The notes under the pieces: generated by a model
Seen by the model: only the letters and a program-made list of their open reading frames with translations
The model's database searches: none
Told to the model about the DNA's origin: nothing
Shown here: positions 10,288 to 30,196 of the stretch, one piece after another
Layout of the letters: each line of letters starts with the position of its first letter
Numbering within the stretch: the first letter of the stretch is position 1
Assembly (NCBI GenBank): GCA_024239015.1
Contig: JANBVM010000003.1
Location: 1 to 32,462 of the forward strand
DNA length: 32,462 bases
Reading direction: 5' to 3'
From: Patescibacteria group bacterium
GTDB lineage: Bacteria > Patescibacteriota > Minisyncoccia > Minisyncoccales > JANBVM01
Program-made: the position numbers and the translations under genes

Positions 10288-10358
10288 TGCGGGGTCGTCC
10301 AATGGTAGGACGGAAGCCTTTGGAACTTCTAATCTAGGTTCGAATCCTAGCCCCGCAG
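10288..10358 (+). tRNA. tRNA-Gln (anticodon TTG)
   Basis: The 71-base cloverleaf folds by eye. The acceptor TGCGGGG pairs with CCCCGCA, with the U1-A72 pair and G73 discriminator typical of tRNA-Gln. The D-arm is GTCC-AATGGTA-GGAC. The anticodon stem is GAAGC/ACTTC with a C-A mismatch at the loop-closing pair, and the loop CTTTGGA places TTG at 34-36. The T-arm is CTAGG-TTCGAAT-CCTAG. The CCA end is not encoded. The gene marks the left boundary of the accessory island, and a repeat unit begins at its last bases. Confidence 0.88.
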
Positions 10359-10386
10359 CAACCTTGAGCGCGGTTCGAGAGACCGA
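10337..10386 (+). repeat. dispersed tRNA-3'-end-like hairpin repeat, copy A (merged with tRNA-Gln 3' end)
   Basis: The tRNA T-arm and acceptor end run straight into GCAGCAACCTTGAG and then CGGTTCGAGAGACCG. The same order (GGTTC T-arm-like piece, GCAGC-type piece, CTTGAG, hairpin with TCGAGAG loop) recurs at 27908-27964 and 30134-30196, in the same orientation. This placement makes it the candidate left attachment site of the island. Confidence 0.6.
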
Positions 10387-10390
10387 TCTG

Positions 10391-10440
10391 CTTATCCCAT
10401 TAGAGCGACCGAGAGGGGTTCGAATCCTACCGCCGGAGCA
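10391..10440 (+). pseudogene. tRNA-like remnant lacking the anticodon arm
   Basis: A D-arm-like piece (TTAGAGCGACCGA) is followed at once by a T-arm-like piece (GGGGTTCGAATCCTAC) and an acceptor-like end (CGCCGGAG then CA). No anticodon stem fits between them and the T-stem is imperfect, so it is not a working tRNA. It looks like a deleted tRNA gene next to tRNA-Gln. Confidence 0.4.
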
Positions 10441-10447
10441 GGCTAGT

Positions 10448-10468
10448 GCTCGGTTTGAGTGACCGAGC
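10448..10468 (+). repeat. hairpin unit of the dispersed repeat family
   Basis: GCTCGGT and ACCGAGC form a perfect 7-bp stem around the 7-base loop TTGAGTG. Stem and loop correspond to CTCGGT-TCGAGAG-ACCGAG in the copy at 27942-27960. Confidence 0.55.
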
Positions 10469-10474
10469 CGCATT

Positions 10475-10618: not shown

Positions 10619-11587
10619 ATGTATAAGAAAAGTATATACTTAGATAAAATAAATAATCTTCTTTCCGCTCTTGTTGTGAGCATTAAAAACAAGAATGCTT
10701 TATCACTTATTGATGGCAGCGTTCTTAGTGAAGATTTTTTCAAAGACCTTTTGAATAAAGTTTATGGCTATAAATTTATTAATTTAAATGAAGAAAAAAG
10801 TAATTACCCGGGCATAGATTTAGGCGATAAGAGGCGCAGGATGTGTGTGCAGATAACTGCTGAGAATGCTGCAAACAAGATTAAGGATACCATTACAACC
10901 TTTGAGACACAAAAAGGATATAAGGAGTATGATACGCTTATAATTTTTGTCGTTGGCTATAAGAAGAATTACAGAAAAGACTTTCAAACAAAAAAAATCC
11001 ATTTTGATAAAAACGACAATATATGGGATATTAGAACACTTTTCAAAAAAATTTATTCGCTTGATACTTTAAAGATAGCTGATATATCTAATTATCTCGA
11101 TTCTGAACTTCAAAACATTATAACTATCAATCCAATCGATTTGTCAGAGTATGATATCAAATTCATTTTGGAAACTCTTTGGGCATATATAAATAAAAAC
11201 CTCACAGTAATAGAGGGTTCAAAAAAGAAATATCAATTACATAAGCGTGAAAATGATTTCATTGCTCGGAAAAATACATTGAATAATGCTAGTGATACAC
11301 TTTTTGACAAGGAAATAATTCCAAATTTAAAGCATGCAAAGGAAATAGAAACTTTTTTAGGTGATCCAATCAACGATGAATACCAAAGAAAGTATTTTGA
11401 AATAACCGAGGCTTTTCAGAAAGTCTATTTTGAGGATTCTGAAAAATTTGATGGCATTGAATCCTTATTCGGCTTCATATTCGATGAAATAATTAATTAT
11501 CAGAACAGAGACGTAATGGATGATGCGAAGCTACTAATTATATTACATAATATGTATTTTAATTGCGATATTGGGAATAATCCCTAG
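10619..11587 (+). CDS. SMEK-domain protein, ABC-3C system component
   Basis: The 322-residue protein starts with a helical segment and LLNKVYGYKFINLN, then PGIDLGDKRRRMCVQIT (residues 64-80). This D-Lx-x(n)-QxT arrangement (D67, Q78) is what I know as the SMEK domain, which looks like a degenerate restriction-endonuclease fold. The C-terminal half is helical and unassigned. SMEK proteins occur in ABC-three-component conflict systems, with a small middle component and a DUF2326-type ATPase. Exactly those two follow: the next gene starts 6 bases downstream and the ATPase gene overlaps it. The role is presumably the effector or sensor arm. Family identification is from memory of motifs. Confidence 0.72.
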   Translation: MYKKSIYLDKINNLLSALVVSIKNKNALSLIDGSVLSEDFFKDLLNKVYGYKFINLNEEKSNYPGIDLGDKRRRMCVQITAENAANKIKDTITTFETQKGYKEYDTLIIFVVGYKKNYRKDFQTKKIHFDKNDNIWDIRTLFKKIYSLDTLKIADISNYLDSELQNIITINPIDLSEYDIKFILETLWAYINKNLTVIEGSKKKYQLHKRENDFIARKNTLNNASDTLFDKEIIPNLKHAKEIETFLGDPINDEYQRKYFEITEAFQKVYFEDSEKFDGIESLFGFIFDEIINYQNRDVMDDAKLLIILHNMYFNCDIGNNP

Positions 11588-11592
11588 ATAAT

Positions 11593-11835
11593 ATGTTAAA
11601 GCCTAACAAGTACACAAGCGTAGATTTATCTGTTTTGTTTGTAAGCTACGAATTACTCAAGATATTTAAATCTCGTAAGGTTATAGCTTATTCAGATTTA
11701 TTAAATCAGGTCTTGAGCGTAAGAGGAGAGAATACACGAAAACTGTTTCTTCCTGCTTTAAGCTTTTTATATTTACTCGGCAGAATTGAGTATCATAAAA
11801 AAGAGGATGTAATAGAATTTAAACATGAAAATTAG
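11593..11835 (+). CDS. ABC-3C system small middle component
   Basis: The 80-residue protein (MLKPNKYTSVDLSVLFVSYE...) is helical, with a winged-helix-like C-terminal end (ALSFLYLLGRIEYHKKEDVIEF). It lies between a SMEK gene and a DUF2326-type ATPase gene and overlaps the ATPase start by 11 bases. That size, position and sequence style fit the middle-component proteins of ABC-3C systems, which are thought to bridge effector and ATPase. The function rests mostly on context; I cannot tell which middle-component subfamily it is. Confidence 0.65.
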   Translation: MLKPNKYTSVDLSVLFVSYELLKIFKSRKVIAYSDLLNQVLSVRGENTRKLFLPALSFLYLLGRIEYHKKEDVIEFKHEN

Positions 11836-13591
11836 CAAAATATATTCAAACGATCCAAGAATGAAACCCATTCTTTTTAGGCCAGGCTTCAATGTTGTGT
11901 ATGGAGATGTTGAAAAGAAATCTGCAATCAAGAACGAACACAACATAGGGAAAACACTCCTTGTTGATTTAATCGATTTTTTATTATTGAAGCGTACGAG
12001 TAAAAAAAATAGACTGTTTAAATATAAAGATAAACTTGGGGGTTGGTGTTTTTTCATGGAACTTGAATTAGAAAAAGGAAAATTTCTAACGATCAAAAGA
12101 TCTCTAGACAGTTCTTCTTTAGCGTCCTTTAAACTCCACTCCAAGAAAAACCAAGATTTTTCGAATGAAATCGTCTGGGATGAGAAGGACACTAAGTTGT
12201 ACGCCAAGAAGTCAAAAGACTCATTGACGATCTTGGAGGATTTATTAGGTTTTGACGTATTGCAAAATTATTCAGTTCGTTTCTTTTTATCCTATCTCTT
12301 GCGCACCCAATATGATTACAGTGATGTATTCAAAATGCCTGAATTTCAAGGGCTAGACGTGGACTGGAAACCACCTCTCTTTAGTTTGTTGGGTTTTGAA
12401 GAAAAATACGTAATTGAAAAATATAGAATTCAGTATGAAATAGATAATAACCAAAGAATACTTAAAACGGTCTTAGGTAGTAAAAAAGATAGTAGCGGTG
12501 AAGCTTACGTATTAAAAGCTGCGATAACAGAGAAAGAGCGTGAAAAAATGCAGGTAAGTCAGCAAGTTGATAAGTTCGACTTTTATTTGAAAGAACAAAA
12601 GTTAAATAAACAATTAATAGAAGAAGTTGAAACTAAGATTAGTAAATTAAATTCTGAAAGATACAGACTTGACTATGAAATAAACAGGATAAAAGAAGCC
12701 TTAAGAGAGAAGGTGATCTTTAGTATTGATGATGTGCAAAAGGTGTTTGAAGATGTGAAAATTTATTTTCCTGAAAAAATGAAGAAAGATTACGATGATC
12801 TAATAAAATTTAATTTAAGTATTTCTAAAGAGAGATCTAAATATTTGCATGAAGATTTAGAAGCATATGCTGAATATCTATCTGATGTCACGTCAGAATT
12901 AAAGAAGTTGAACCAGCAAAAAGAGGAAGACCTCTCTTTCTTAAGAGGTACTGATACTTTTAGGAAGTATAAGCAGAATCAACAAGATTTATTTGGGCTA
13001 GAAGAGCAAATAAATCAATACAAAGCAAGATTGGATTCTTTAGGGACAGCCGAAAATTATGAGAAAAAAATCGAAGTTCTTAGAGAAGAATCTAAAGATG
13101 TCGCAAAAAGTCTAAAGAAAGTCATAGACGCTGGGAATAGAATACACGGTAAAATTTCAGCTATATTTACAGATATATTTAAAAAGACAATGCACGGTAG
13201 TGCATTACTTGTTGTGAGACCTAATAATGCTGGCAATCCTGAATTTGAAAGTATAACCATAAGCAAAGAAGCACAAGACGAGTTAACTGGTCAGAGCGAA
13301 GGCTATACGTCAAAAAAAGTGCAGTGTGCAGCTTTTGTGTTGTCCATCCTAAGTGTTTATAGCTCAAGAAAGTTTTATAAATTTGCCTATCACGATGGAT
13401 TGTTTGAGAGTTGGGGAAACAATCCCAAAAAGAATTTTACAAATGAAGTGAGAAAAATTTGTAAAGAAAATGATCTACAATACATAGTTAGTATGATTAA
13501 AAGCGATGTTCCTGAAGATTTTTCTTTCAACGAAGGAGAAATTATTTTAAGCTTAGACGATAAAAACAAATTACTTGGCTTTTCTTTTTAA
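11825..13591 (+). CDS. DUF2326-type SMC/ABC-like ATPase of ABC-3C system
   Basis: The 588-residue protein has an ABC/SMC-like split ATPase. The N-terminal P-loop is NEHNIGKTLLVDLIDFLLL, with N-x-GKT replacing the canonical GxxxxGKT. A long charged coiled coil spans about residues 225-430. The C-terminal lobe has a signature-like SEGYTSKKVQCAAFVLSI and a Walker-B-like FAYHDGLFESW. This is the layout of the DUF2326 ATPases of ABC-3C conflict systems. It likely senses or remodels nucleic acid and controls the SMEK partner. It overlaps the middle component gene by 11 bases, so translation is coupled. Codon and base use are AT-rich and differ from the preceding core genes, in line with transfer. 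Confidence 0.78.
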   Translation: MKISKIYSNDPRMKPILFRPGFNVVYGDVEKKSAIKNEHNIGKTLLVDLIDFLLLKRTSKKNRLFKYKDKLGGWCFFMELELEKGKFLTIKRSLDSSSLASFKLHSKKNQDFSNEIVWDEKDTKLYAKKSKDSLTILEDLLGFDVLQNYSVRFFLSYLLRTQYDYSDVFKMPEFQGLDVDWKPPLFSLLGFEEKYVIEKYRIQYEIDNNQRILKTVLGSKKDSSGEAYVLKAAITEKEREKMQVSQQVDKFDFYLKEQKLNKQLIEEVETKISKLNSERYRLDYEINRIKEALREKVIFSIDDVQKVFEDVKIYFPEKMKKDYDDLIKFNLSISKERSKYLHEDLEAYAEYLSDVTSELKKLNQQKEEDLSFLRGTDTFRKYKQNQQDLFGLEEQINQYKARLDSLGTAENYEKKIEVLREESKDVAKSLKKVIDAGNRIHGKISAIFTDIFKKTMHGSALLVVRPNNAGNPEFESITISKEAQDELTGQSEGYTSKKVQCAAFVLSILSVYSSRKFYKFAYHDGLFESWGNNPKKNFTNEVRKICKENDLQYIVSMIKSDVPEDFSFNEGEIILSLDDKNKLLGFSF

Positions 13592-13924: not shown

Positions 13925-14701
13925 TTAGTAAATACTATAAACTACTTCATCGTCAAGAATTATCTCTTCGCTCTGCCATCCTTCTGATTTATCCCAATTT
14001 AACGTAACAAACCAGTTACTTCTTATCATGGCACCAAAAGAATTTTGGGCATCAACATAAGAAACAACCCTGAAGCGATTTTTTAATGCTGGCTCGTCTT
14101 CGTGGGCCGGAACGTCAGGTAGGGAAATAATCCTAGGTTCGCCTTCAAAGACTCCGGGAAACTTAGCCGTTGAGGGAGATTTTAAGAAAGCTTTTACAAA
14201 CTTTTTTGCTATAATACCGGCTTGACCTTCAGTAGGCTTGCTTTCTTGCCCTTGATTGGATTGAGACGATGGAGAACTTGGTTTGGAATCATTTGTAAGC
14301 CCCGATTTAAAGATAAAGATTATCAGAATAATCAGGAAGGTTAAAACTACCGGATTACTTTTCTTTTTAGAAGGTTTTTCTAATACTGCTTGTTCAGGAA
14401 TTTCTGATAATGGTTTTTCTTGGTCTCCTCTTTGGTTTTGTTTAACCTGTCCGAACTCTCGTTTTGATTGGTAGATAGCGTCACGGAGTTTGTTTTGGTC
14501 GTTTGCCTTGACTGGTATTTTGATTCTTTTTCCCGCAGTTGTTTCAATAGTTACTTGTCCAAGAAATCTTGATGTTTCTACAGATACAATGTGATTGATT
14601 GCAATAGTCTTCTCGCCGCTCAAAATTAACTTGTAAGCCACATAATCAGGATAAACGCTTATCCTGGAGCCTGTTTGAGATGTTTCAAATAAAGGTTTCA
14701 T
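13925..14701 (-). CDS. membrane-anchored protein with N-terminal PH-like domain
   Basis: The 258-residue protein has three parts. Residues 1-80 form a short beta-rich PH-like domain of the kind found in bacterial bPH proteins (ISVYPDYVAYKLIL, TIAINHIVSVETSRFLGQ). One transmembrane helix lies at about 116-131 (NPVVLTFLIILIIFIF). After a Ser/Gln-rich linker (about 137-155), an outside domain of about 100 residues (AKKFVKAFLKSPSTAKFPG ... SNWFVTLNWD) follows. The last part resembles small secreted domains seen fused to zinc-ribbon or PH modules in bacteria. Function is unknown. No signal peptide; the topology is N-in/C-out. It stands alone between the ABC-3C and recombinase modules, preceded by a long GC-rich structured region. 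Confidence 0.6.
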   Translation of the reverse strand: MKPLFETSQTGSRISVYPDYVAYKLILSGEKTIAINHIVSVETSRFLGQVTIETTAGKRIKIPVKANDQNKLRDAIYQSKREFGQVKQNQRGDQEKPLSEIPEQAVLEKPSKKKSNPVVLTFLIILIIFIFKSGLTNDSKPSSPSSQSNQGQESKPTEGQAGIIAKKFVKAFLKSPSTAKFPGVFEGEPRIISLPDVPAHEDEPALKNRFRVVSYVDAQNSFGAMIRSNWFVTLNWDKSEGWQSEEIILDDEVVYSIY

Positions 14702-14725
14702 ATTTTGATTTATTTTAATTTTATT

Positions 14726-14869
14726 TTACCGACTTTTTTTGGTTTTGCATTTTAACTGACGGGAACACAAAGCTCGCCGCCAGCGATGACTTGCGCCACC
14801 CATACCGGTTTCCCGATATGACCGATCAAGGTGCTCTGACGACGAGCTTAATACCTTGATCGGTTTTTT
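14726..14869. ncRNA. GC-rich structured intergenic element (candidate RNA or leader)
   Basis: This stretch is clearly richer in GC than its surroundings. CGGGAA (about 14760) pairs with TTCCCG (about 14810) around a GC-rich interior, and a strong terminator hairpin follows at 14821-14869. Two readings are possible: a small plus-strand RNA ending at that terminator, or the 5' leader of the minus-strand PH-like gene. A 25-codon minus-strand frame (14726-14803, starting MGGASHRWRRALCSRQ) also lies inside it. I do not recognise a known riboswitch. Confidence 0.4.
14821..14869 (+). terminator. strong rho-independent terminator on the plus strand
   Basis: ACCGATCAAGGT and ACCTTGATCGGT form a perfect 12-bp stem, with an inner GCTC/GAGC stem in the loop, followed by six T residues. 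No plus-strand gene lies just upstream, which is why a small RNA is suspected. Confidence 0.8.
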
Positions 14870-14938
14870 GCGCCATACCTTATGAAATTTATAAGGGTTA
14901 GGCATATTAAATTGTTACTTCATCATATCAGAACCTTT

Positions 14939-16264
14939 CTATTTTTCCAGATAAATCATTTTATCCTTGAGTACTAGCTTTGTCTTTAAGCGGGAAAGAA
15001 GTTCTCTTTTTTCTACGATAGAACCTTCCTTTAAAAGGTATTTTGCGTAGATCTTGGCATTTATTTTATCTTTGGCTTCAGCTTGCTTTTTTATTCCAAG
15101 AACTGAGGATCTGAATTTGTTATACCTTTCTACTTCTTTTTCTATTCCTTCTTCCATACCAAGCTTGTCCAAGCTAACCTTGTCTATGATGCTTAGCAGC
15201 TGCTCAATCAATCCTTCTTCTCTAATGTATCCTGATTTACATTCAATGTCCCTACTTCTAGTACAGCCATAATACACATACCTTTTAGTGGTTCCATCAC
15301 TAAGCTTTTTAAATTTTTCATCTGCGCTAACCCCAGAGTCACACAATCCACATTTAAGTAATCTGGTGAAGGCAAATTCTTTACTTTGAGCTCTTACTAT
15401 ATTGTCTCTGGTAAGCCTATCCTGAACTTTCTCAAACAACTCTTTGGTTATAATCGGGGTATGTTTACCCGTATACCAGTTTCCACTCCCGCGAGGATAT
15501 TCAAAGACTCCATAATAGAAGGTGTTTTTAAGAATGAGATATATATTGCTCAAACTCAGAGGTTTTCCATTCTTGGTTTTAAAATTAGTATCTCTCAACC
15601 ATTGGTATAGTTTTCTGCCGCTCCATTCTTCATGAATAACTTTCTCAAACATTTTTTTAATAACCGGTGCGCGCTTTGGATCAACTAATACATAGCCCTT
15701 TCTATCTGTCCTTTTTTCGTTTAGGTAGCCCGTTGGCGCTGTTGATGACCAAAGACCCATCTCTGCCTTAGCCCTTAAGCCTCGTTTAACATTTTGGCTT
15801 TTGTTATCGTTTTCAAGCTTGGCCTGACTCCCAAGAATCATTAGTAGAAATTTTTCATTAGGCGAGTCACTAAATTTTTGACTATAAGTTCTGATGGCGA
15901 GAAGTATTTTCTGGTCCATTAGATCTACTAATGCTCCCAAGTCACCTGCATTTCTACTTAGTCTATCTGGTGCCCACGTAAGAATAGCGTTGAACTTACC
16001 GACCTCTATATCTTTGAGCATTTGGTTATAAACAGGCCTTAATCCTACCGCTTTGGCAGAATGGCTTTCTTTTCGTATTTCAACCACATCGAGCTTCTCT
16101 CGTTCTGCTATCTTGAGCATTTCTTTAATCTGCGAATCAATGGAAAGCGCCTGAAGTTCATCAGATTCAGTTGATTTTCTGGCATATAGGCAGTAGCGGG
16201 TGATAGGGATTTGAGATGCTTCTTTACTTTTGTTTTGGGTATCTGTGAGGGTTGTATTCATCAT
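14939..16264 (-). CDS. large serine recombinase (site-specific integrase/resolvase family)
   Basis: The 441-residue protein has the resolvase/invertase catalytic domain with Ser31 in YCLYARKSTESDE and the arginine-bearing segment ILTWAPDRLSRN. A Recombinase domain follows (RAKAEMGLWSSTAPTGYLNEKR), then a zinc-ribbon (CGLCDSGV...YGCTRSRDIEC) and a C-terminal coiled region. Large serine recombinases integrate and excise phages and elements at att sites through 2-bp crossover with Ser-DNA links. It is on the short side for the group, because the coiled-coil part is reduced. It lies 131 bases after the terminase gene on the same strand, so it is the obvious mobility enzyme for the island. Confidence 0.93.
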   Translation of the reverse strand: MMNTTLTDTQNKSKEASQIPITRYCLYARKSTESDELQALSIDSQIKEMLKIAEREKLDVVEIRKESHSAKAVGLRPVYNQMLKDIEVGKFNAILTWAPDRLSRNAGDLGALVDLMDQKILLAIRTYSQKFSDSPNEKFLLMILGSQAKLENDNKSQNVKRGLRAKAEMGLWSSTAPTGYLNEKRTDRKGYVLVDPKRAPVIKKMFEKVIHEEWSGRKLYQWLRDTNFKTKNGKPLSLSNIYLILKNTFYYGVFEYPRGSGNWYTGKHTPIITKELFEKVQDRLTRDNIVRAQSKEFAFTRLLKCGLCDSGVSADEKFKKLSDGTTKRYVYYGCTRSRDIECKSGYIREEGLIEQLLSIIDKVSLDKLGMEEGIEKEVERYNKFRSSVLGIKKQAEAKDKINAKIYAKYLLKEGSIVEKRELLSRLKTKLVLKDKMIYLEK

Positions 16265-16266
16265 TT

Positions 16267-16363
16267 ATTGGTCTTTTTAATTCTTATATGTGTCGACCAA
16301 TTACATTGATGACGCAACCCTGCTAGTGAGTCCAGGATCCATCAGTTGGTAAACTGTTGGTAA
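16267..16363. promoter_or_regulatory. inverted and direct repeats upstream of the recombinase gene (candidate attP/operator region)
   Basis: ATTGGTC (16267-16273) and GACCAAT (16295-16301) form a perfect 7-bp inverted repeat just before the recombinase start. GTTGGTAA occurs twice, 11 bases apart (16345-16352, 16356-16363). Phage attachment sites of serine recombinases usually lie next to their gene, so this is a reasonable place for one; the exact site is not identifiable by eye. Confidence 0.3.
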
Positions 16364-16395
16364 CTAAAAGCCATCAAAAATCCCTTTAAATCCCT

Positions 16396-17862
16396 CTAAA
16401 ATTCTCGGTCTAGGAGTCCAGCGAGAATCGGTCTTTGTCCTGTTCCCTGCGAGGGAAATCCGCTTGAAGTATAATCTGACTCTTCGATAATCTTTCCAAT
16501 AAGTAGCGCAAAAGCATCAGCCAAATCATCATATTTTTCTGATCCAAACCCTAAGAGCTGTTGTATCAACTGCTTGTTTCCCTCTCTATGAAACAAAACC
16601 TTTCCTTGTTTTAAATACGGAGTGGTGATAGACAGTCTAGCTTTTTTATCTTGACCCATAAGAGGAATCCCTTTAGCCGGATAACCTTCGTTTTCAAGTT
16701 GCTGAATAAGAGATTTCTGATAACCAACGTCTTCTATATAAATGTAGTGCGGTTTACCAGCTGAGGCATATATCTCTTTTATTCTTTCCGTTGTCTCAGG
16801 AAAAGTTAATCTTTCATTTACTGGAAAGGGGAGTATATATATTTTTAATTTTCCTCTTTCTCTACACACTCTGGCAGATACCATGGCTGTAAAGTGAGCG
16901 CTGGATTTCTGGGAAATAGCTAAATCTAAAGCAGTAGCTGAATAGAGATATTGAACTTCTTCTTTCTCTGTGTCAGGCAATTCATCATAATAAGTTATCC
17001 AATCAGGATGTATAACTCTGTCTGCATCCGGAACTATCTTTAACATATATTCCCTTTGCCAGGTTGCTTCATCTCCAATCTTCCTCTTTTCGGCATTTAC
17101 AGCCTGCTCGTCCGGGAATTTACTTCTCCATAAGGCATTTTCTCGGTCCATAAATGGGTATTCTTTATATAGTCCGTCTAACCGATCTTCTTTTATTCCT
17201 CTCTTGATGCGCATTAATGGTGAATCTTCGTGCAGGAGGTTACCTATAATAATTAATCTTGTGTTCTGATCTCCAGATGGAATTACATCACCTGTAAGCC
17301 AGGCATATGTTTTATCCCGATTCTCTTTAGTTCTTATTGAATCTAAATCCTCAATGTCGTCGCAGATAATGAGGTCTGGTCTGTGTTCTCCGTGTTTCAA
17401 CCCTCTGATGCTCTGCTCAACCGAAGCAACAGAAATCCGCGCCTTATACCTAGGTATTACAAGGGAAGACGAACCCCATTGATTAGTCTGTTCCTTGAAA
17501 GGACCCAGGTCTGCTCGTAATAAATCATTGTTTTCAAGCTCTTCTCTCAAATTTGCTAAGTGTTGATGCACTTGCCTTTGAGTTTGGCTGAGAATAACAA
17601 CGTATTTCTTTTGCTGTTCTCCAAGGATTGCCCAAATAGGGTAGGAGAGAGTAAAAATGGTTGATTTAGCTGAACCTCTGAAAGCTACCATGACAAGAGT
17701 TTTGATCTTTGTATTTTCACTCAAAGCAAACATTTCTTTCTGGAATTTAGCGGTTTGGTGTTTCACGTGTAACTTGAGATACATATTGAAAAACCAGTAA
17801 TGACTCCTTTTCCCAAGCTCCCGCCTGAGTCTTGGGTTTCTAATTATCTTATCTATATTCAT
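16396..17862 (-). CDS. phage terminase large subunit
   Basis: The 488-residue protein has an N-terminal packaging ATPase with Walker A AFRGSAKST (residues 60-68) and Walker B LIICDDIED. The C-terminal RNase-H-like nuclease has acidic residues in SATALDLAISQKSSAH, YIEDVGYQKSLI and KYDDLADAFALLI. All motifs are intact, so the protein should be active. TerL packs DNA into a prohead by docking on a portal protein, but no portal or capsid gene is found in the island. The start overlaps the small-subunit stop by 4 bases. The last codons (LLDREF) lie on a 13-base sequence matching the dispersed repeat core at 12/13. Confidence 0.9.
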   Translation of the reverse strand: MNIDKIIRNPRLRRELGKRSHYWFFNMYLKLHVKHQTAKFQKEMFALSENTKIKTLVMVAFRGSAKSTIFTLSYPIWAILGEQQKKYVVILSQTQRQVHQHLANLREELENNDLLRADLGPFKEQTNQWGSSSLVIPRYKARISVASVEQSIRGLKHGEHRPDLIICDDIEDLDSIRTKENRDKTYAWLTGDVIPSGDQNTRLIIIGNLLHEDSPLMRIKRGIKEDRLDGLYKEYPFMDRENALWRSKFPDEQAVNAEKRKIGDEATWQREYMLKIVPDADRVIHPDWITYYDELPDTEKEEVQYLYSATALDLAISQKSSAHFTAMVSARVCRERGKLKIYILPFPVNERLTFPETTERIKEIYASAGKPHYIYIEDVGYQKSLIQQLENEGYPAKGIPLMGQDKKARLSITTPYLKQGKVLFHREGNKQLIQQLLGFGSEKYDDLADAFALLIGKIIEESDYTSSGFPSQGTGQRPILAGLLDREF

Positions 17863-18281
17863 TTTTCTTTTTCCTCCTTTAATTGTTTATTATCGAAACC
17901 TTTTGTATTAAGAGAGGCCAGACTTAGAGCCTCTTTAATGAGTGCTTCCTCCTCTGGGGTTAGTTCTTCGTCCTGGATTCTAAGTTTAGCCGTGATTTCT
18001 AAGTGATTGCCGTAGGTTCCATGGTGATGCCTCAACCAGAACGTTATAGCGCTCAAATTTTGGTCCTTAATAGCCGAGATCAGCTGACTCTCGGCTAAAT
18101 CATTGACCAGTAGTAAGCCCTGCTGAATCGCTTTGTCTGTCTCTTTTTTAAACTCAGGATCTTCTTTTCTCCATCGGTAGTAAGTGGCCCTTCCAACACC
18201 AGTTTTCTCGCATATAATCTGGACGATCGGTGTTTGGCTGAGGCGGTCTATTATTAGCTTTTTAGTCTTATCTTTTTTCAT
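17859..18281 (-). CDS. phage terminase small subunit-like HTH protein
   Basis: The 140-residue protein has an N-terminal helix-turn-helix (PIVQIICEKTGVGRATYYRW, about residues 17-36) followed by helices (LAESQLISAIKDQNLSAITF, WLRHHHGTYG), a pattern I know from small terminase subunits of the phBC6A51-like type. TerS recognises the packaging site and recruits TerL. It is translationally coupled on both sides: its ATG overlaps the methyltransferase stop and its stop overlaps the TerL start, each by 4 bases. A general transcription factor is possible, but the position before TerL makes TerS much more likely. Confidence 0.82.
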   Translation of the reverse strand: MKKDKTKKLIIDRLSQTPIVQIICEKTGVGRATYYRWRKEDPEFKKETDKAIQQGLLLVNDLAESQLISAIKDQNLSAITFWLRHHHGTYGNHLEITAKLRIQDEELTPEEEALIKEALSLASLNTKGFDNKQLKEEKEK

Positions 18282-19603
18282 GACTGTATCTTTTTAGTTT
18301 TCTTACCGGTTAACCTTTCCCATCTTCGCTTGATAACTTCGCAATACACATTTGATAATTCCATCAGATAACATCTCCTCTGCATTTTTTCTGATGCAAT
18401 AAGTGTTGATCCACTTCCACCAAATGGTTCTATAATTAAATTGTTCCTTTTAGTTAAAACTTTGATGTAGGGGATAAGTATCTCCACTGGTTTGCAGCCA
18501 AAAACAACTCCTTGTCCTGAGCTTTTGGCGTCGTCAGCCTTAAACTGTATAAAGTCTGTAGGGCAAATCTTTTTGCCCTTTTTGTATCCTTCCCAGTGTG
18601 GTCTACCGCCAATTGCATACAGTGCAGTCTCATACTCGTTCTGCAATAATTCATCTTCATCTTCCATGTTCAAATCAATATTCCCTGAAGTACCTGCCAT
18701 GGCTATATCATGCTTACTGAAGAATCTATATTTAGCTGCGAACCCTTGAGTTCTATTAGGAAGGTTCCAGACAATCATATTCCTGACCTTCCAATGTTTT
18801 TCCATCTCGCCCCAGACTTCTCTGATGTTCTTCCAATTTTCAAAAACAATAATATTAAAATCTTGTTTTTGAATCTTACTGATATTAGCCATCCATTTTT
18901 CAGTAAAGTCATCCGGTAGAACATCTGTTTCAAGATACTTCCTATTTCTACGGAATCCAAACCCAGGAGCCTTGCCCTTATACTTAGTTTTTAGATATTC
19001 AAGCCGATAGGGCGGATCTGTAAAGCAGAAATCTGCTTTTTGTCCATCCATTAGTTTTAGGACGTCATCTTTTTGGGTCGAATTGCCACACATTAATTTG
19101 TGGTTTCCTAACTGATAGATATCTCCTTTTTTCACTTTCACTTTTTTAATATCCAGTTTTCTTAGCTCTTTCTCCAGATCAAATTCTTCCGGCATAGATT
19201 CGATAGGGAAGATATCGTCTAACTCTTCACTGTGGAATCCTATATCAGATAAGAAATTTTCATCAAATTTGCCCAAAAGCTCCAAGTCCCATTCTCCGGT
19301 GTTTTTATTTAGCCTAAGGTTTAACTCTTTTTCTTTTTCAATGTCTGATATGTTTATGTACAACACAGGAATCTCCTCATAGCCAAAATCTTTAGCCACC
19401 TTGAGCCTGAAATGGCCTCCTATTACTACATCCTTTCTGTTGGGAGCCGAGTTACAGATTACAGGCTTGAGCAATCCAAACTTCTTTATGCTTTCTTTTA
19501 AATCTGCCGTTGCTTTATCTGACCACTTTCTAGGATTGTATGTTGACGGCTTGAGCTGGTTTATTGGAACATAAGAAACCTTGAGGTTATTAATTTCATT
19601 CAT
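18278..19603 (-). CDS. ParB/Srx-like nuclease domain fused to DNA adenine/cytosine-N4 methyltransferase
   Basis: The 441-residue protein begins with a ParB-N domain (YVPINQLKPSTYNPRKW, and VIGGHFRLKVAKDFGYEEIP with the GGHxR-type motif at 62-66). A linker of about 60 residues precedes a beta-class amino-methyltransferase with motif IV DPPY (196-199) before motif I EPFGGSGSTLIASEKM near residue 398. DPPY suggests N6-adenine. Such fusions are common next to terminases in prophages, where they may modify or mark packaged DNA. It is the first gene of the minus-strand module and its upstream side faces the inverted-repeat control region at 19635-19827. Confidence 0.9.
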   Translation of the reverse strand: MNEINNLKVSYVPINQLKPSTYNPRKWSDKATADLKESIKKFGLLKPVICNSAPNRKDVVIGGHFRLKVAKDFGYEEIPVLYINISDIEKEKELNLRLNKNTGEWDLELLGKFDENFLSDIGFHSEELDDIFPIESMPEEFDLEKELRKLDIKKVKVKKGDIYQLGNHKLMCGNSTQKDDVLKLMDGQKADFCFTDPPYRLEYLKTKYKGKAPGFGFRRNRKYLETDVLPDDFTEKWMANISKIQKQDFNIIVFENWKNIREVWGEMEKHWKVRNMIVWNLPNRTQGFAAKYRFFSKHDIAMAGTSGNIDLNMEDEDELLQNEYETALYAIGGRPHWEGYKKGKKICPTDFIQFKADDAKSSGQGVVFGCKPVEILIPYIKVLTKRNNLIIEPFGGSGSTLIASEKMQRRCYLMELSNVYCEVIKRRWERLTGKKTKKIQS

Positions 19604-19634
19604 AGTAAATTCAAATTTAATTAATAAAACAAAA

Positions 19635-19662
19635 ATCAGTAGCTATAATATAAGCTACTGAT
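19635..19662. repeat. perfect palindrome around a TATAAT box
   Basis: ATCAGTAGCT and AGCTACTGAT pair perfectly (10 bp) around the spacer ATAATATA; TATAAT occurs at 19644-19649. A -10 box inside a palindrome is a classic operator/promoter layout. Confidence 0.65.
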
Positions 19663-19683
19663 GAAAAAACCGAGGTAAAATCA

Positions 19684-19723
19684 AATCAGCGCTTATAATA
19701 TAAACTAAGTGTAAGTGCTGATT
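19684..19723. repeat. second inverted repeat sharing the TATAATATAA core
   Basis: AATCAGCGCTTA and TAAGTGCTGATT pair over 12 positions with one G-T pair. The sequence ATCAG-x-GCT-TATAATATAA is shared with the palindrome at 19635, so the two are related units. Confidence 0.6.
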
Positions 19724-19726
19724 GAC

Positions 19727-19753
19727 TACTTCTTGGCGGGCCAACTAGAAGTA
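19727..19753. repeat. nested hairpin in the control region
   Basis: TACTTCT and AGAAGTA form the outer stem; TTGG-CGGG-CCAA forms an inner hairpin. Confidence 0.5.
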
Positions 19754-19874
19754 ATATATTTCCTCAAGCCGTACGAGAAGGAAGGAGAGTTTTTTACCTA
19801 TAAGAGTTCGACAACTACTATAGTTTTACAACCACCATCTTCTCTGACAATAAGGAACCTTTATATCTAGAATA

Positions 19875-19900
19875 GTCTTGAAGAGAAAGACAATCTTTTT
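19875..19900 (+). terminator. terminator-like hairpin within the control region
   Basis: GTCTT and AAGAC form a stem around GAAGAGA, followed after three bases by a T-run. With the TATAAT at 19644 or 19694 it could delimit a plus-strand RNA of roughly 200-250 bases. Confidence 0.4.
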
Positions 19901-19957
19901 ATTTATTTGTAAACTATTTTAATCATAGGTTATCAGGAATCTCTGTCAAGTCCCTCA

Positions 19958-19971
19958 AGAACTTGCGTTTC
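19958..19971 (+). promoter_or_regulatory. SOS-box-like site upstream of the repressor gene
   Basis: AGAACTTGCGTTTC resembles the Gram-positive LexA box CGAACRNRYGTTYC, with mismatches at the first base and the first centre base. It lies 50 bases before the start of a LexA/UmuD-like gene. Possible autoregulation; not proven. Confidence 0.3.
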
Positions 19972-20020
19972 TCTCCTTTCTGTGCTACAAATACCTTATT
20001 AAGGAGTTAAAACCTATCTT

Positions 20021-20659
20021 ATGCATATAGTACAGAAAAAGATATTAAAATTTCTTCAAAAAACAAAAATATCGAGCATTGGTTATTCTACGCTGGGGAG
20101 GTTTATTGAGAGTCCTCACCCTCAGAAGATAAAACATCATATTGAGCAGTTAGAGAAAAAGGGATTTATTTCTTATAACCATGAGACCAAAGCCGTAAAG
20201 GTATTAAAGGTAGTTACTTTTGATGACTATGGTTTAATTAATCTGCCTATAGTGGGAGCTGCAAATTGTGGTCCGGCAGGCTTGATAGCTGAAGAATCTT
20301 TCGAAGGCTATCTAAAGGTATCCCCGGAAATTTTAGGAAATAAAAATCCAGACGGCTTATTTGTTATAAAGGCAGAGGGAAACTCTCTCAATGATGCAAA
20401 AATCCCGGGTGGAACTGTAGAGGATGGGGATTACGTCGTTATTGATGGGAAAAATCGTAGTCCCTCAGATGGTGATTACGTCCTATCTGTAATTGACGAT
20501 TGCGCTAATCTTAAAAGATTCTACAGAAAAGGAGATCAGATCATATTAATGTCCAAATCAAAATCAGACATACCTCCCATTTATATTCATTCCAAGGATT
20601 TTCCAGACTATATGGTAAATGGGGTAGTGGTAAGAGTTATTAAAAAACCAAAATCTTAA
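20021..20659 (+). CDS. LexA/UmuD-like self-cleaving repressor (S24 peptidase)
   Basis: The 212-residue protein has a LexA-like winged helix (STLGRFIESPHPQKIKHHIE, residues 23-42) and a C-terminal S24 domain. The cleavage-site region GAANCGPAGLIAEE carries Cys83-Gly84, like UmuD and unlike the Ala-Gly of classical LexA. The catalytic serine is S122 in AEGNSLND and the catalytic lysine is K165 in ANLKRF. The protein should therefore cut itself when stimulated by RecA filaments and relieve repression. It probably controls the divergent recombinase/terminase operon through the inverted repeats just upstream, as in prophages. An AAGGAG Shine-Dalgarno-like sequence lies about 14 bases before the ATG. 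It could alternatively be the host LexA, but its island position argues for an element-borne repressor. Confidence 0.85.
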   Translation: MHIVQKKILKFLQKTKISSIGYSTLGRFIESPHPQKIKHHIEQLEKKGFISYNHETKAVKVLKVVTFDDYGLINLPIVGAANCGPAGLIAEESFEGYLKVSPEILGNKNPDGLFVIKAEGNSLNDAKIPGGTVEDGDYVVIDGKNRSPSDGDYVLSVIDDCANLKRFYRKGDQIILMSKSKSDIPPIYIHSKDFPDYMVNGVVVRVIKKPKS

Positions 20660-20713: not shown

Positions 20714-23626
20714 ATGAAGTCAGTAATCAATAGATTAAAGAAGGTATTTTTAGAGAGAGGTAAAGGTTCCGAAGTTGATCCTGGCTTTAAGTTACTTCCA
20801 GATAAACCAATTAAACCAGACAAACAAGAAGACATCCGTTTTGGTCATAAACAAATAATAAATACAATTTTTAAACTTATAAGATACACTGATCCTCCTC
20901 TTGCGATAGGATTATACGGTAATTGGGGTACCGGTAAAACTACGATAGTTAAATCTGTTGAGGAGCTAGTAAAACAAATCGGGTACCAGACGCTTTATTT
21001 TGATGTATGGAAGTACGAACAAGACTCACTAAGAAGACAATTTCTTATTGAGCTCGATAGAAAAGTTTTTGATAGTCGCTTACAATATGAGGCATTATTA
21101 AATCAGTCACTTTCGTGGCCGAAGAAAATTGATTTTCGCACTTATGTAAAGGAAATAAGCAAAAACATCGTTGTTAGGTCTTTGGGGATCGGTACAATAG
21201 TTCTTCTTGGTCTTTGGGGATTCTTTACTTTAACCGAATCTAAACCTTCCGTAATATTTTTATCAAATGCAGTTTTCCAGCTCGGACTTCTGGGAACGAT
21301 AATAAGTTTTATCTTAAAGTCATTTGAAGTAGTTCATGGCACGGTTCGAGAATATCGAACAGATTCTGCCGAAGGCTTTGAAGCTCATTTTAAAAATGCT
21401 TTTGAGAAAAAAGAATTAAAGGACAAAACTCTTTTTGTAATCATAGATAATCTTGATCGTGTGGAAAACTCAAAAGTAATAAGTGTATTATCTGACATAA
21501 AAACTTTTCTTACAGGTGATGATGGTGAGCAAAAGGTGGTATTCTTAATTCCGTGTGATTATGAATCCCTAAGAGTACGTCTCAGCAAACTACATGGCGA
21601 CGACTTTGACGCAGACGAGTTTTTTAGGAAATTTTTCAACTTAAGTATTCGAATTCCGAAGTTTATCGATATAGATCTTTTTAATTATATTCGTGATTTA
21701 TTAAAAGAAACGAAAGTTGAAGAATATCAAAAAAATTCTGAACTAGGAGGAGTTATTTACGCATCACTCAAGGACAATCCTAGAGAGATAAAGCAATTCA
21801 TTAACTCGCTCACTACACAGGTGTTACTTGCACGAGAGAGACAGCTTCAGGTTGTGCTCGATAGCATCGCTTTTTTGGCAAAACTTCTAGTGATACGGCA
21901 AAAGTTTCCGAAACTGTATTTAATCCTTGAAGAAGAATCCATCCGCTCTCTCGTGACTTTGGATGACGAAGACTTGGCAAAGGCCTTTAAGCGTAATTTA
22001 GTCTTTTCGGGTTGGAGTGAAGACAAGATCGCCGAGGAAATTAGGAGGTTTGAAGAGTTTAATGGTCTTACGCCAGGTATTAACGTTGACACTCTCGATG
22101 TCTTTCTTACACTTCGTCAATCAGACGAAGAAAAACAAATACCCGAATGGAAGAGTTATGTATTGGCTGCCGAGGAGAAAGAATATAACGCTGCAACAAA
22201 AATATTTTCACAAATCAAAAAGGAAAATAATCTAGCAATTTTTGACCAACTTTTAAAAGACAGGGTTGAAAGGGTGCGTATGGGTTCTGCTCTTATAAAC
22301 TTTGTCGCGATTACATTGCAAATCCTTGGGAAAAACAAAGAACCCCTGAAAGAATTTTTTGATGCTGCAGCAAATCACTTTCCATATGACATTGATTTTA
22401 ATCGTTTCTACAAGGAGTTTGACCCTCAAACAATATTTAAGTTTTGGTATTCAAACATCAGTAACACAAAAAGAGATAGAATTGTACCACCGTTTATTGC
22501 ACTATTAGAGATAATAATTGACGGAAAAACAACCGCACTAGATCAAGATTATGCCTTGTCCTTACTAACCGTAATCGCAGAGAGTCCACAAATATTCCAA
22601 AAGTATAAAAAACAAATCGGAAATCAAATATCAGATCATTTCTTTACATATCCCTACTTACTTCAATTTAGAAGTAAAAGATCACGCGAGTTGTTTGTAT
22701 TAAAAGATGCTAGCGGTAAGTTTGTCGACTCCATTGACCTTGAAGATTTTGAGAATCCCGCACAATTGAAAGAAGTTCTTCGGTTTTGGAATAGATTGAG
22801 CCTACCTACCAGTGCAATATTAAATTCGTTCAAAAAATACAGAGAATTGGTCAAGGCGACTAAGCCTGAAGATGAGAGCGAGATAAAACTAGAACTCAGC
22901 AAACAGTTTGTGCAATTTTCTAAAAATAATGCGTCGATTGTAAATAAAGAAAGTGATACTTCGACATATTCGCTTGAAATATCAGCTATAGCTGCCAGTT
23001 TCGGTAGTTTCTACGATCAGATGGATGAAACAGGTAAGAAGCAAATAATATCCGCTATCGATTACTTATCTAATTGGAAAATGAACAGTAATCGTAGCGT
23101 GATGGATTCGAAGATTAGCAATTTTATCGAATCGTCAAGCGATGAGACTTTGCGCGCGGTAAGTATGAGGCAATTGAAGGATTGGACACAAAAGCCAACG
23201 ACCGTTGAGGCCGTTTTGCGTAGAAGTCAAAAAAATCCAATAATTTTCTTAGAAAAAAAGCTATACGAAGTTCTTAGTGACGACCAAAATCAAATAGTTG
23301 TTATGGGTCTCATAAATAATGGCCTAAGTTTTTTGCCCACCATGGAGGCAATTAATTTTAATATTAGCGACAAAGAGGCTATGATCGTGGGTATCATCCA
23401 GAGGATTCCTGCGTTGAATACAGCTGATTTGGCAAAAATTATGAATGCGCTAAAAGAATTAGGCATCGGCTCTCTTAGCCACAGAGTGGATGAGCTTAAG
23501 AATCGTTTAATTGAGCAAAAGAGCAATCATCCAGCGGAAAGGGAGGATTTTAAAAAATTACTTCGACAATATAAGAAAGATAATATTTTCAATAAGGGAC
23601 AGCTTAATGATTTAGGTATTGAATAG
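20714..23626 (+). CDS. KAP-family P-loop NTPase, membrane-associated
   Basis: The 970-residue protein has Walker A GLYGNWGTGKTT (residues 66-77) and Walker B FVIIDNLDR (241-249). Between them lie two membrane helices at about 153-172 and 183-201, the typical KAP signature insertion. DNPREIKQFINSL resembles the arginine-finger/sensor region. The remaining roughly 600 residues are helical, without clear motifs, and look like a repeat-type (HEAT-like) scaffold. KAP NTPases recur in anti-phage and conflict islands, with partner effectors. The gene follows the repressor by 54 bases. Its long C-terminal tail and the genes after it suggest that it is the core of an unnamed defence module. Confidence 0.83.
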   Translation: MKSVINRLKKVFLERGKGSEVDPGFKLLPDKPIKPDKQEDIRFGHKQIINTIFKLIRYTDPPLAIGLYGNWGTGKTTIVKSVEELVKQIGYQTLYFDVWKYEQDSLRRQFLIELDRKVFDSRLQYEALLNQSLSWPKKIDFRTYVKEISKNIVVRSLGIGTIVLLGLWGFFTLTESKPSVIFLSNAVFQLGLLGTIISFILKSFEVVHGTVREYRTDSAEGFEAHFKNAFEKKELKDKTLFVIIDNLDRVENSKVISVLSDIKTFLTGDDGEQKVVFLIPCDYESLRVRLSKLHGDDFDADEFFRKFFNLSIRIPKFIDIDLFNYIRDLLKETKVEEYQKNSELGGVIYASLKDNPREIKQFINSLTTQVLLARERQLQVVLDSIAFLAKLLVIRQKFPKLYLILEEESIRSLVTLDDEDLAKAFKRNLVFSGWSEDKIAEEIRRFEEFNGLTPGINVDTLDVFLTLRQSDEEKQIPEWKSYVLAAEEKEYNAATKIFSQIKKENNLAIFDQLLKDRVERVRMGSALINFVAITLQILGKNKEPLKEFFDAAANHFPYDIDFNRFYKEFDPQTIFKFWYSNISNTKRDRIVPPFIALLEIIIDGKTTALDQDYALSLLTVIAESPQIFQKYKKQIGNQISDHFFTYPYLLQFRSKRSRELFVLKDASGKFVDSIDLEDFENPAQLKEVLRFWNRLSLPTSAILNSFKKYRELVKATKPEDESEIKLELSKQFVQFSKNNASIVNKESDTSTYSLEISAIAASFGSFYDQMDETGKKQIISAIDYLSNWKMNSNRSVMDSKISNFIESSSDETLRAVSMRQLKDWTQKPTTVEAVLRRSQKNPIIFLEKKLYEVLSDDQNQIVVMGLINNGLSFLPTMEAINFNISDKEAMIVGIIQRIPALNTADLAKIMNALKELGIGSLSHRVDELKNRLIEQKSNHPAEREDFKKLLRQYKKDNIFNKGQLNDLGIE

Positions 23627-23769
23627 GTATTAAACAAAAAAAGAGATTTGTTAAAAAAAAGCAAAAGAGAAAACCAATAAAGGAAGTAGTCAAGAGATTA
23701 GCTGAGATTTTTTTCATGCAGGTCAGGGGCCGAAAAGAGTTTAGAGATTACTATGGAAATGACTTATAA
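23627..23769 (+). pseudogene. open frame without normal start (possible small-gene remnant)
   Basis: After the KAP stop an open frame runs to TAA at 23767-23769 and encodes a very basic peptide (KQKKRFVKKKQKRKPIKEVV then KRLAEIFFMQVR). The only ATG is at 23716 and gives 17 residues. The peptide looks gene-like (amphipathic helix after a basic head) but lacks a usable start, so it may be the 3' end of a lost gene. It overlaps the next gene's start by 17 bases. Confidence 0.3.
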
Positions 23770-24835
23770 ATATCTCAAACCAGAATCACATTACAGCGAT
23801 CTCTACGATCGCTTTACTGTTGAAGAATGTAGAAGGATAGAAAAAAGTCTTTCTAAATTAGAATACAAGCCAAAAATAAAAGGAAATAAAAAATCAAAGA
23901 AAAAAGAAATAAAGGTAACAATTAATTTAGCCCCCATTCCTTTATATGCTATTAAGGGCGAACGATATTTTAAAAAAGCTGAAACAATAAAAGAATGGAT
24001 GGAAAGAGATAGGGGCAGGGATGAAAAATTAGAAAACACGCCACCACCTCAAAATATTTCATGTCCCTCTTGTGACTCAGAAATGGAAGTTACTATGAAA
24101 GATTTACGTATTGAATTAGATGAATCAAAAAATAGGGTATTGTTCTCCTTTGAATGTCCCTCCTGTAAGAAAAGAAAAGGAATATATGAAAACGGAGAAG
24201 GGTGGAAACCTGCTCCGGTAATGTGCCCAAAATGCAACAATGAAGTAGAAAGGGATCATAAGAGGAAAGGAAACAAGATAACTACCATTTACAAGTGTTC
24301 AGAATGTGGTCATAAAGAAAAAGAGGTTTGGGATCTTGATAAAAAAGAGCCTAAAGAAAAGCTAGACCCAGATTTTGAAAAAGACAGAAAAAGATTCTGC
24401 CTATCAGAAAAAGAAGGACAAGAATATGTTGCTTCTAAGGTAAAGCTGGAGCATATTTCAAAGATGCTGGACGAATGGAAAGAAAAACAAAAGAACAAGG
24501 AATTATACGATAAGGTTAAGAAAATAAAGAAATTAAACATTGCAGGACTCAAAAAACTCTTAACACCAACCCTAGATAAAGGAAATTATATTAAACTTGA
24601 ATTTTCAAAACCAGAAATTAAAAAAGACATAGCCATTGAATTCACTGTTCAGGATGATAAAGCTGATAGGGGAAAGCATGACAGTAGAATCCAACTGCAA
24701 AGGATTATCAAGAAAAATATTGAAAATACGAACTGGAGATTAATGAGTGAAGGGGTTAATTACAGATTAGGGATTTTATCTGGGAGACTAAGAGGATATG
24801 ATAATAAAGAAGATTTAATAAGGCTGATAATCTGA
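23753..24835 (+). CDS. double zinc-ribbon protein of unknown function
   Basis: The 360-residue protein is strongly charged, with eight cysteines in four CxxC pairs: C104/C107, C135/C138, C158/C161 and C182/C185. These make two zinc ribbons in a row. The N-terminal 100 residues are basic (GNKKSKKKEIKV). A helical linker (about 225-265) leads to a C-terminal domain of about 110 residues with alternating beta-like segments (YIKLEFSKPEIKKDIAIEF). It probably binds nucleic acid, but I do not recognise the family. It ends 3 bases before the next gene's ATG, so it is co-transcribed with the HEPN protein that follows. Confidence 0.6.
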   Translation: MEMTYKYLKPESHYSDLYDRFTVEECRRIEKSLSKLEYKPKIKGNKKSKKKEIKVTINLAPIPLYAIKGERYFKKAETIKEWMERDRGRDEKLENTPPPQNISCPSCDSEMEVTMKDLRIELDESKNRVLFSFECPSCKKRKGIYENGEGWKPAPVMCPKCNNEVERDHKRKGNKITTIYKCSECGHKEKEVWDLDKKEPKEKLDPDFEKDRKRFCLSEKEGQEYVASKVKLEHISKMLDEWKEKQKNKELYDKVKKIKKLNIAGLKKLLTPTLDKGNYIKLEFSKPEIKKDIAIEFTVQDDKADRGKHDSRIQLQRIIKKNIENTNWRLMSEGVNYRLGILSGRLRGYDNKEDLIRLII

Positions 24836-24838
24836 TAT

Positions 24839-25759: not shown

Positions 25760-25830
25760 TATAATTCTGGCTTAAACGTTAAAAAAAACCGATAAAATTT
25801 ATAAAGAAAATGTAAAAATATTTCAGAATT

Positions 25831-26928: not shown

Positions 26929-27012
26929 GGGTGGGTAGATAGATTCTTTGCTGTTTTCTATGCTTTCTAATTTTGATTTAAGGTTTTAATTAAGAGCTTT
27001 AATGTAGACTAT

Positions 27013-27907: not shown

Positions 27908-27964
27908 CTTCGGTTCTAGACCGAGGATGCCAGCAACCTTGAGCTCGGTTCGAGAGACCGAGAC
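27908..27964 (+). repeat. dispersed tRNA-3'-end-like hairpin repeat, copy B (upstream border of CBASS)
   Basis: The first hairpin is TCGGT-TCTAG-ACCGA, then GGATGCCAGCAACCTTGAG, then the second hairpin CTCGGT-TCGAGAG-ACCGAG. The order and loop sequences match copies A (10337-10386) and C (30134-30196). It ends 40 bases before the CD-NTase start. Confidence 0.7.
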
Positions 27965-28003
27965 GGATCAGAAGGTTCCAAGAACAAATCAATTATTAAG
28001 AAT

Positions 28004-30133: not shown

Positions 30134-30196
30134 AGCAGGTTCTAGTATCGTCTGCGACCCGCAGCTATCTTGAGCTCCGTTCGAGAGACCGAGACT
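30134..30196 (+). repeat. dispersed tRNA-3'-end-like hairpin repeat, copy C (downstream border of CBASS)
   Basis: AGCAGGTTCTAG, then CGACCCGCAGCTATCTTGAG, then CTCCGT-TCGAGAG-ACCGAG (one stem mismatch). Same orientation and order as copies A and B. It lies 50 bases after the effector stop and is the last island sequence before obg, so it is a candidate right attachment site. Confidence 0.7.

What the first reader, a model, noticed from the sequence alone, without database searches (positions are those of the whole stretch)
14939..19603. Packaging-only mobile module: recombinase, TerL, TerS, ParB-methyltransferase, no capsid genes
TerS and TerL are intact and coupled by 4-base overlaps with a ParB-methyltransferase gene, and a serine recombinase follows. 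There is no portal, protease, capsid or tail gene in the island. This could be a phage satellite that packages itself into a helper's particles with its own terminase, or a prophage remnant. The intact motifs argue against simple decay.
Basis: partly seen in the sequence, partly recalled or inferred. Interest (0 to 1): 0.65.

Follow-up and report, generated by a model that had tools for sequence, protein, structure and literature searches.

The report
Capsid-less mobile defence islands with terminase
Tiny parasitic bacteria of the CPR phylum carry a widespread family of mobile DNA islands that bring anti-virus defence genes and a complete, working-looking viral DNA-packaging motor but no virus shell, so they most likely travel between cells inside shells stolen from infecting viruses.

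Summary
In detail: recombinase, TerL, TerS and ParB-methyltransferase lie intact at 14939-19603, with no structural gene. It is not prophage decay. The four genes are the core of a 17.6-kb element (about 10.36-27.95 kb) inside a 19.9-kb island at the 3' end of tRNA-Gln. A related genome lacks this island, and 30/31-bp att repeats mark the element's ends. A CBASS cassette sits beyond it, between two further att copies.

The same core recurs across CPR/Patescibacteria: 128 surveyed loci hold both TerL and the recombinase. Their TerLs form one fully supported clade with no structural-gene member; true prophage TerLs branch outside it. All four genes are under purifying selection (dN/dS about 0.1). 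The first tRNA beyond the recombinase points its 3' end at the element in 32 of 32 loci. No other gene is conserved, and the cargo is mostly anti-phage defence. None of 20 host genomes holds the portal or capsid families found in related prophages.

Best reading: a new family of phage-satellite-like islands that package themselves with their own complete terminase into capsids of an incoming phage. Mobility and long-term maintenance are well supported. Packaging into helper capsids is inferred, and no helper was identified. I found no earlier description in the open-access library searched.

The parts
10288..10359 (+). tRNA-Gln(TTG), chromosomal target; element lies at its 3' end
   Evidence: ARAGORN; homology with the related genome G287 (L059) stops at 10360
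10356..10391 (+). att site at tRNA 3' end (left end of island): CAGCAACCTTGAGCGCGGTTCGAGAGACCGATCTGC
   Evidence: 30/31 bp repeat at 27931 (E 1.6e-10); matches 31, 28 and 26 of 36 elsewhere in the window against at most 21 in shuffled island sequence
10436..10471 (+). degenerate att copy (26/36), 80 bp after the first, with a tRNA-3'-end-like stretch before it
10619..13591 (+). cargo: ABC-three-component defence system (SMEK/CTD12 10619-11587, MC8 11593-11835, DUF2326 ATPase 11825-13591)
   Evidence: Pfam; PADLOC PDC-M68B E 3e-46
13925..14905 (-). two small genes after the recombinase (258-aa protein with a hydrophobic, probably membrane-spanning stretch, and a 59-aa ORF)
   Evidence: phrog_13160, unknown function
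14939..16264 (-). large serine recombinase (REC)
   Evidence: PF00239, PF07508, PF13408; phrog_95
16396..17862 (-). terminase large subunit: Walker A FRGSAKST, Walker B LIICDDIED, nuclease residues D313, E377, D446/D449 invariant in the 20-member alignment
17859..18281 (-). terminase small subunit
   Evidence: PHROG small-terminase families
18278..19603 (-). ParB-N / N6-N4 DNA methyltransferase (DPPY and FGGSGS motifs present)
19604..20020 (.). divergent promoter region with a perfect palindrome ATCAGTAGC-N10-GCTACTGAT (19635-19662), candidate operator (weak evidence)
   Evidence: 8 of 500 shuffles reach it; not recurrent with the same arms in relatives
20021..20659 (+). S24/LexA-CI-like repressor, divergent from the packaging operon
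   Evidence: PF00717, phrog_4; S24 family in 26 of 128 loci
20714..23626 (+). cargo: KAP-family P-loop NTPase
   Evidence: PF07693; PADLOC PDC-S20 E 1e-21
23753..27810 (+). four cargo genes of unknown function
   Evidence: no family, or weak zinc-ribbon
27931..27966 (+). att copy, right end of the main 17.6-kb element
   Evidence: 31/36 match
28004..30084 (+). CBASS cassette: cyclase 28004-28915, E2-like 28905-29540, 2TM (SLATT_4) effector 29524-30084; lies between two att copies and has no recombinase of its own
30162..30197 (+). outermost att copy (28/36); host homology resumes at 30263

Best explanation
This is one member of a family of integrative, satellite-like defence islands of CPR bacteria. 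A large serine recombinase integrates the element at the 3' end of a tRNA gene, between att sites (shown by anatomy). An S24 repressor silences a ParB-methyltransferase-TerS-TerL operon (inferred; 26 of 128 loci have it). On phage infection or DNA damage the operon is switched on and the element is excised (inferred). TerS recognises a pac/cos signal on the element, and the element's own TerL docks on the portal of empty procapsids made by an incoming helper phage and pumps the element in (inferred). The methyltransferase probably marks or protects the packaged DNA (inferred). The particle injects the island into a new cell, where it integrates and supplies anti-phage systems. The element thus carries a full packaging motor but borrows the whole particle.
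For: (1) Recurrence: the same ParB-MTase-TerS-TerL-[variable cargo]-REC order in many CPR lineages. (2) One TerL clade (SH-aLRT 100) holds all 99 non-redundant REC-linked TerLs and none of the 16 TerLs with structural genes. (3) Catalytic residues kept and dN/dS medians 0.08-0.11 for TerL, TerS, REC and ParB-MTase. (4) Integration: the first tRNA beyond REC points its 3' end at the element in 32/32 loci (p 5e-10) and in 16/16 of the class set (partly the same elements). Att pairs: window 30/31 bp, L275 35/35 bp, L283 30/32 bp. Empty-site comparison with G287. (5) Only REC (128), TerL (128), ParB-MTase (123) and TerS (at least 80) are common among 128 loci; no other family except S24 exceeds 20. 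(6) Cargo is mostly defence: Gabija, type I/II R-M, CBASS, Shedu, KAP, ABC-3C. (7) Portal families phrog_2662 and phrog_12 and capsid family phrog_10 are absent from 20/20 module-bearing genomes but present in 3 of 4 prophage controls, so the particle would have to come from outside.
Against: No helper phage, packaging signal, excised circle or virion-derived read was shown. No replication gene is conserved, whereas earlier satellites are said to encode a replicase (PMC10690885). Viral contigs (IMG/VR) members may be assembled from cellular DNA. Some loci are cut by contig ends (33 of the 132 TerLs in the clade have unknown context), and the PHROG tally for their neighbours shows only the 25 commonest families.
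Confidence: 0.72

Rival explanations
1. Decaying prophage remnant: structural genes were lost and the packaging genes are leftovers.
For: TerS-TerL-ParB-MTase is a common phage gene order; sister TerLs belong to full prophages with portal, protease and capsid next to TerL.
Against: One deep clade without structural genes across the phylum, dN/dS about 0.1, intact catalytic residues, precise tRNA/att targeting, and no structural family in cargo listings.
Confidence: 0.04
2. The terminase is an interference weapon rather than a vehicle: it occupies helper portals or cuts phage DNA, as part of the defence repertoire, while the island moves only by chance or transformation.
For: It sits among defence genes; satellites commonly interfere with helper packaging; many cargo genes are anti-phage.
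Against: TerS and the ParB-MTase are kept with TerL and REC as a co-inherited core (Mantel p 0.001-0.002), which fits a packaging machine for the element's own DNA better than a decoy. Interference and packaging can coexist.
Confidence: 0.12
3. The terminase has a capsid-independent role: a DNA translocation or processing motor for excision, replication or cell-to-cell transfer that does not involve phage particles.
For: No resident portal/capsid family in 20 host genomes; no helper known; no replication gene conserved.
Against: Both ATPase and nuclease residues and TerS are kept as in phages; I know of no terminase that works without a portal.
Confidence: 0.08
4. Gene-transfer-agent-like or lateral-transduction system: TerS/TerL package host DNA in place, starting at the integrated element, rather than the excised element.
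For: No replicase is conserved; the packaging operon is transcribed towards the tRNA junction, so in-place headful packaging would run into host DNA (orientation).
Against: GTAs encode their own capsid, absent here; a recombinase is always present and att sites are kept, implying excision and integration matter.
Confidence: 0.08

Closest known systems
Phage-inducible chromosomal islands (PICI / SaPI), TerS-type
   Same: Integrated island of about 13-18 kb with a repressor, integrase and own TerS; carries defence-type cargo; no capsid genes
   Different: SaPIs redirect the helper's TerL with their TerS (PMC10690885); here a complete TerS + TerL is carried, with a serine rather than tyrosine recombinase, a ParB-MTase, and no conserved replicase or capsid-remodelling gene
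Capsid-forming PICIs (cf-PICI) and MulchRoom/MiniFlayer satellites
   Same: Carry both terminase subunits
   Different: Those also carry portal, major capsid and head genes (PMC10690885); here all of these are missing in every member examined
PICMI, PLE and P4-like satellites
   Same: Small integrated elements lacking capsid genes that carry or confer phage resistance
   Different: PICMIs depend only on a DNA packaging motif (PMC11389934) and P4 uses the helper terminase at cos sites (PMC10690885); none is described there as carrying TerL
Tycheposons and VEIMEs (marine satellites)
   Same: Integrative elements with cargo, proposed as phage satellites (PMC11389934)
SCC elements (staphylococcal cassette chromosome)
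   Same: Large serine recombinases, one chromosomal target, tandem accretion of cassettes bounded by repeats (from memory, a lead only)
   Different: SCC targets rlmH and carries no terminase; here tRNA 3' ends and a packaging module

Membership tests
Phage satellite (functional definition: encodes mechanisms or signals favouring packaging into particles wholly or partly made by a phage; PMC11389934) | encodes a packaging mechanism | tested here: met
   intact TerS + TerL under purifying selection
Phage satellite | not itself a phage: no virion genes of its own | tested here: met
   no structural family in the window; no TerL context had both REC and structural genes; no other gene conserved
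Phage satellite | its DNA is found in helper particles / is transferred by a helper phage | not testable with these tools
   needs virions, a helper and an infection experiment
PICI / SaPI | tyrosine integrase, divergent stl/alpA-type regulation, pri/rep replication module | tested here: not met
   serine recombinase; no replication family conserved among 128 loci
cf-PICI | portal, head protease and major capsid genes in the island | tested here: not met
   absent in the window and relatives
Prophage (Caudoviricetes) | portal/capsid/tail genes next to TerL | tested here: not met
   present in the control prophages L052-L055, absent here
Gene transfer agent | host-encoded capsid cluster | tested here: not met
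   portal phrog_2662/phrog_12 and capsid phrog_10 absent from G000 and 19 other module genomes; more distant capsids cannot be excluded
Integrative element at tRNA genes | insertion at tRNA 3' end with duplicated att core | tested here: met

The most novel reading that the evidence does not exclude
The family is a phylum-wide class of CPR mobile elements in which a complete terminase has persisted for a long time without any capsid gene. It may be the main carrier of defence genes among CPR bacteria, working either as a 'motor-only' satellite that takes over procapsids of any compatible phage, or through a terminase that moves DNA without capsids at all.
Probability: 0.3. Interest if true: 0.9.

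Novelty: new variant of a known kind. Interest (0 to 1): 0.75.

Why it matters
How CPR bacteria, with tiny genomes and an epibiont life, exchange genes and acquire phage defence is poorly known. This gives a concrete, testable vector: a recombinase-terminase core found in roughly 5-8% of sampled CPR genomes, inserted at tRNA genes, with swappable defence cargo. It also fills a gap in the range of satellite strategies, between 'TerS only' and 'full capsid plus terminase': a full motor and no shell. The module can serve as a marker for finding defence systems and helper phages in CPR.

Tried and rejected
TerL as single query in viral contigs gave nothing; an alignment query was needed. A 44-bp terminal repeat of the 17.3-kb contig L213 looked like a circle but falls in an RHS-like repeat, so rejected as an excised form. 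Short direct repeats (up to 17 bp) near tRNAs were as frequent on the wrong strand (4 vs 4 loci); only repeats with E below 1e-8 were used as complete att pairs there. A palindromic operator between the repressor and ParB-MTase genes is not recurrent in relatives and is kept only as a candidate. Decay, GTA and cf-PICI readings were tested and set aside. Literature searches found no prior description, but the library holds open-licence papers only and no preprints.

Full report
WHAT IS THERE. The four genes are present exactly as described, with clear family matches. The operon order on the minus strand is ParB-MTase, TerS, TerL, REC; the first three overlap by 4 bases. TerL keeps the Walker A (FRGSAKST), Walker B (LIICDDIED) and nuclease residues; D313, E377, D446 and D449 are invariant in 20 relatives. 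Its AlphaFold model (pLDDT 86) matches HK97, D6E, Sf6 and T7-like terminases by fold.

THE ISLAND. Two chromosomal flank genes (dnaX and an Obg-like GTPase) were searched in 60 genomes of the order. In G287, same family, they lie 3.7 kb apart. Alignment of that locus (L059) with the window shows homology stopping at 10360, the 3' end of tRNA-Gln, and resuming at 30263. G287 holds an unrelated insert of three genes (about 3.4 kb) at the same tRNA, so this is a hotspot. Within the window a 36-bp att-like sequence at the tRNA 3' end recurs in the same orientation at 27931 (31/36), 30162 (28/36) and 10436 (26/36); shuffled island sequence never exceeds 21. The simplest reading is two elements side by side: a 17.6-kb one with the packaging core, ABC-3C and KAP genes, and a 2.2-kb cassette with a CBASS operon (cyclase, E2-like, 2TM effector) and no recombinase.

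RELATIVES. The TerL has relatives in 29 of 384 genomes of the class and 41 of 380 of the phylum. Counting only those at about 41% identity or more leaves roughly 5-8%. Gene maps and a wider survey of class, phylum, GTDB and IMG/VR loci show REC downstream of TerL in 128 cases, in the same direction in all but one (L045). Structural genes lie downstream of TerL in 18 other cases, and never both. Some GTDB loci repeat class/phylum loci; after removing near-identical TerLs there are 99 REC-linked and 16 structural ones. In the TerL tree all 99 REC-linked TerLs plus 33 with cut or unknown context form one clade (support 100, branch 0.96) that contains no structural-gene TerL; 15 of the 16 structural ones branch just outside. 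Full prophages were confirmed by PHROG hits to portal, protease and major capsid beside TerL. Close pairs give dN/dS medians of 0.08-0.11 for all four genes.

CORE AND CARGO. Clustering 2,219 proteins of 128 REC+TerL loci gives REC in 128, TerL in 128, ParB-MTase in 123, TerS in at least 80, S24 repressor in 26, and no further family in more than 20. So there is no hidden conserved capsid or replicase. Cargo proteins match Gabija, type I and II restriction-modification, CBASS, Shedu, KAP and similar systems. TerL, REC and ParB-MTase distances are correlated but loosely (Mantel r 0.14-0.26, p 0.001-0.002): a co-inherited but reshuffled module.

INTEGRATION. In 32 of 32 further loci the first tRNA beyond REC points its 3' end at the element (p 5e-10), while only one locus shows a tRNA on the other side within the held sequence. 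The class set gave 16 of 16 (partly the same elements). Complete att pairs were found in L275 (35/35 bp, 13.2 kb) and L283 (30/32 bp, 13.1 kb); both contain the palindrome TCGTGCTAGCACGA, also present behind tRNA genes in L040 and L251. A GACC[CG] motif occurs just after the tRNA in 22 of 42 element-adjacent tRNAs against 6 of 60 others (p 3e-6), and three of those six are themselves next to elements. G239 holds a tandem array with three recombinases.

WHERE WOULD THE CAPSID COME FROM. Portal families phrog_2662 and phrog_12 and capsid family phrog_10 were searched in the whole genomes of 20 module carriers, including the window's own genome: no hit. Three of four prophage-control genomes hit (the fourth has another portal family). 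So no resident helper prophage of these families is present and the particle would have to come from an infecting phage. The nearest isolated phage TerL is only 26% identical.

MECHANISM. Shown: an intact, selected packaging motor; a recombinase tied to tRNA 3' ends and att repeats; defence cargo; absence of structural genes. Inferred: excision on induction, recognition of a pac/cos site by TerS, docking of TerL on a helper portal, transfer in helper particles, and protection of DNA by the methyltransferase. Rivals that keep the data but change the use of the terminase (interference, in-place packaging, capsid-free transfer) remain open and are scored separately.

PRIOR KNOWLEDGE. Published satellites listed in PMC10690885 and PMC11389934 use a helper terminase at cos sites (P4, some SaPIs), their own TerS only (other SaPIs), or a full capsid-plus-terminase set (cf-PICI, MulchRoom/MiniFlayer). 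A full terminase without any capsid gene is not among the strategies described there. Searches for CPR satellites or terminase-bearing defence islands found none, with the limit that subscription papers and preprints are not held.

LIMITS. Nearly all hosts are metagenome bins. Three hits carry non-CPR labels (L210 Bacillota, L250 Omnitrophota, L257 Pacearchaeota) and may be binning errors; the list was cut at 80, so members outside CPR cannot be excluded. IMG/VR membership does not prove virion origin. Distant structural proteins could escape profile searches, though none is conserved across loci.

Noticed in passing
window 27931-30197: A CBASS operon lies between two att copies without its own recombinase, as if it were a passenger cassette moved in trans.
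   Followed up: partly
L059:12108-15497 (G287): The same tRNA-Gln site in a related genome holds a different small insert (AAA-ATPase-like gene and two more genes) with no terminase or recombinase: an insertion hotspot.
   Followed up: partly
L228, L231, L235, L242, L132, L134, L136, L137: Two different TerL genes in tandem (about 525-580 aa and 500-543 aa) before the recombinase, several in Peribacteria/Peregrinibacteria-labelled bins.
   Followed up: no
L048/L075/L076 (G239): Tandem array at one tRNA-Ser with three recombinases and two terminase modules, and a 23-bp att-like copy about 33 kb from the tRNA.
   Followed up: partly
L275 and L283 att sites; L040, L251 behind the tRNA: An identical palindrome TCGTGCTAGCACGA directly behind tRNA-Ser, -Glu and -Asp genes in different hosts, probably the crossover site of one recombinase subgroup.
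   Followed up: partly
L213:10760-14229: Two adjacent, more distant serine recombinases (576 and 582 aa) replace the usual single one.
   Followed up: no
L052-L054, L125, L126: CPR prophages with a sister TerL and portal/capsid-type genes downstream: candidate helper relatives.
   Followed up: partly
L210, L250, L257: Module on contigs labelled Bacillota, Omnitrophota and Pacearchaeota; either binning errors or spread beyond CPR.
   Followed up: no
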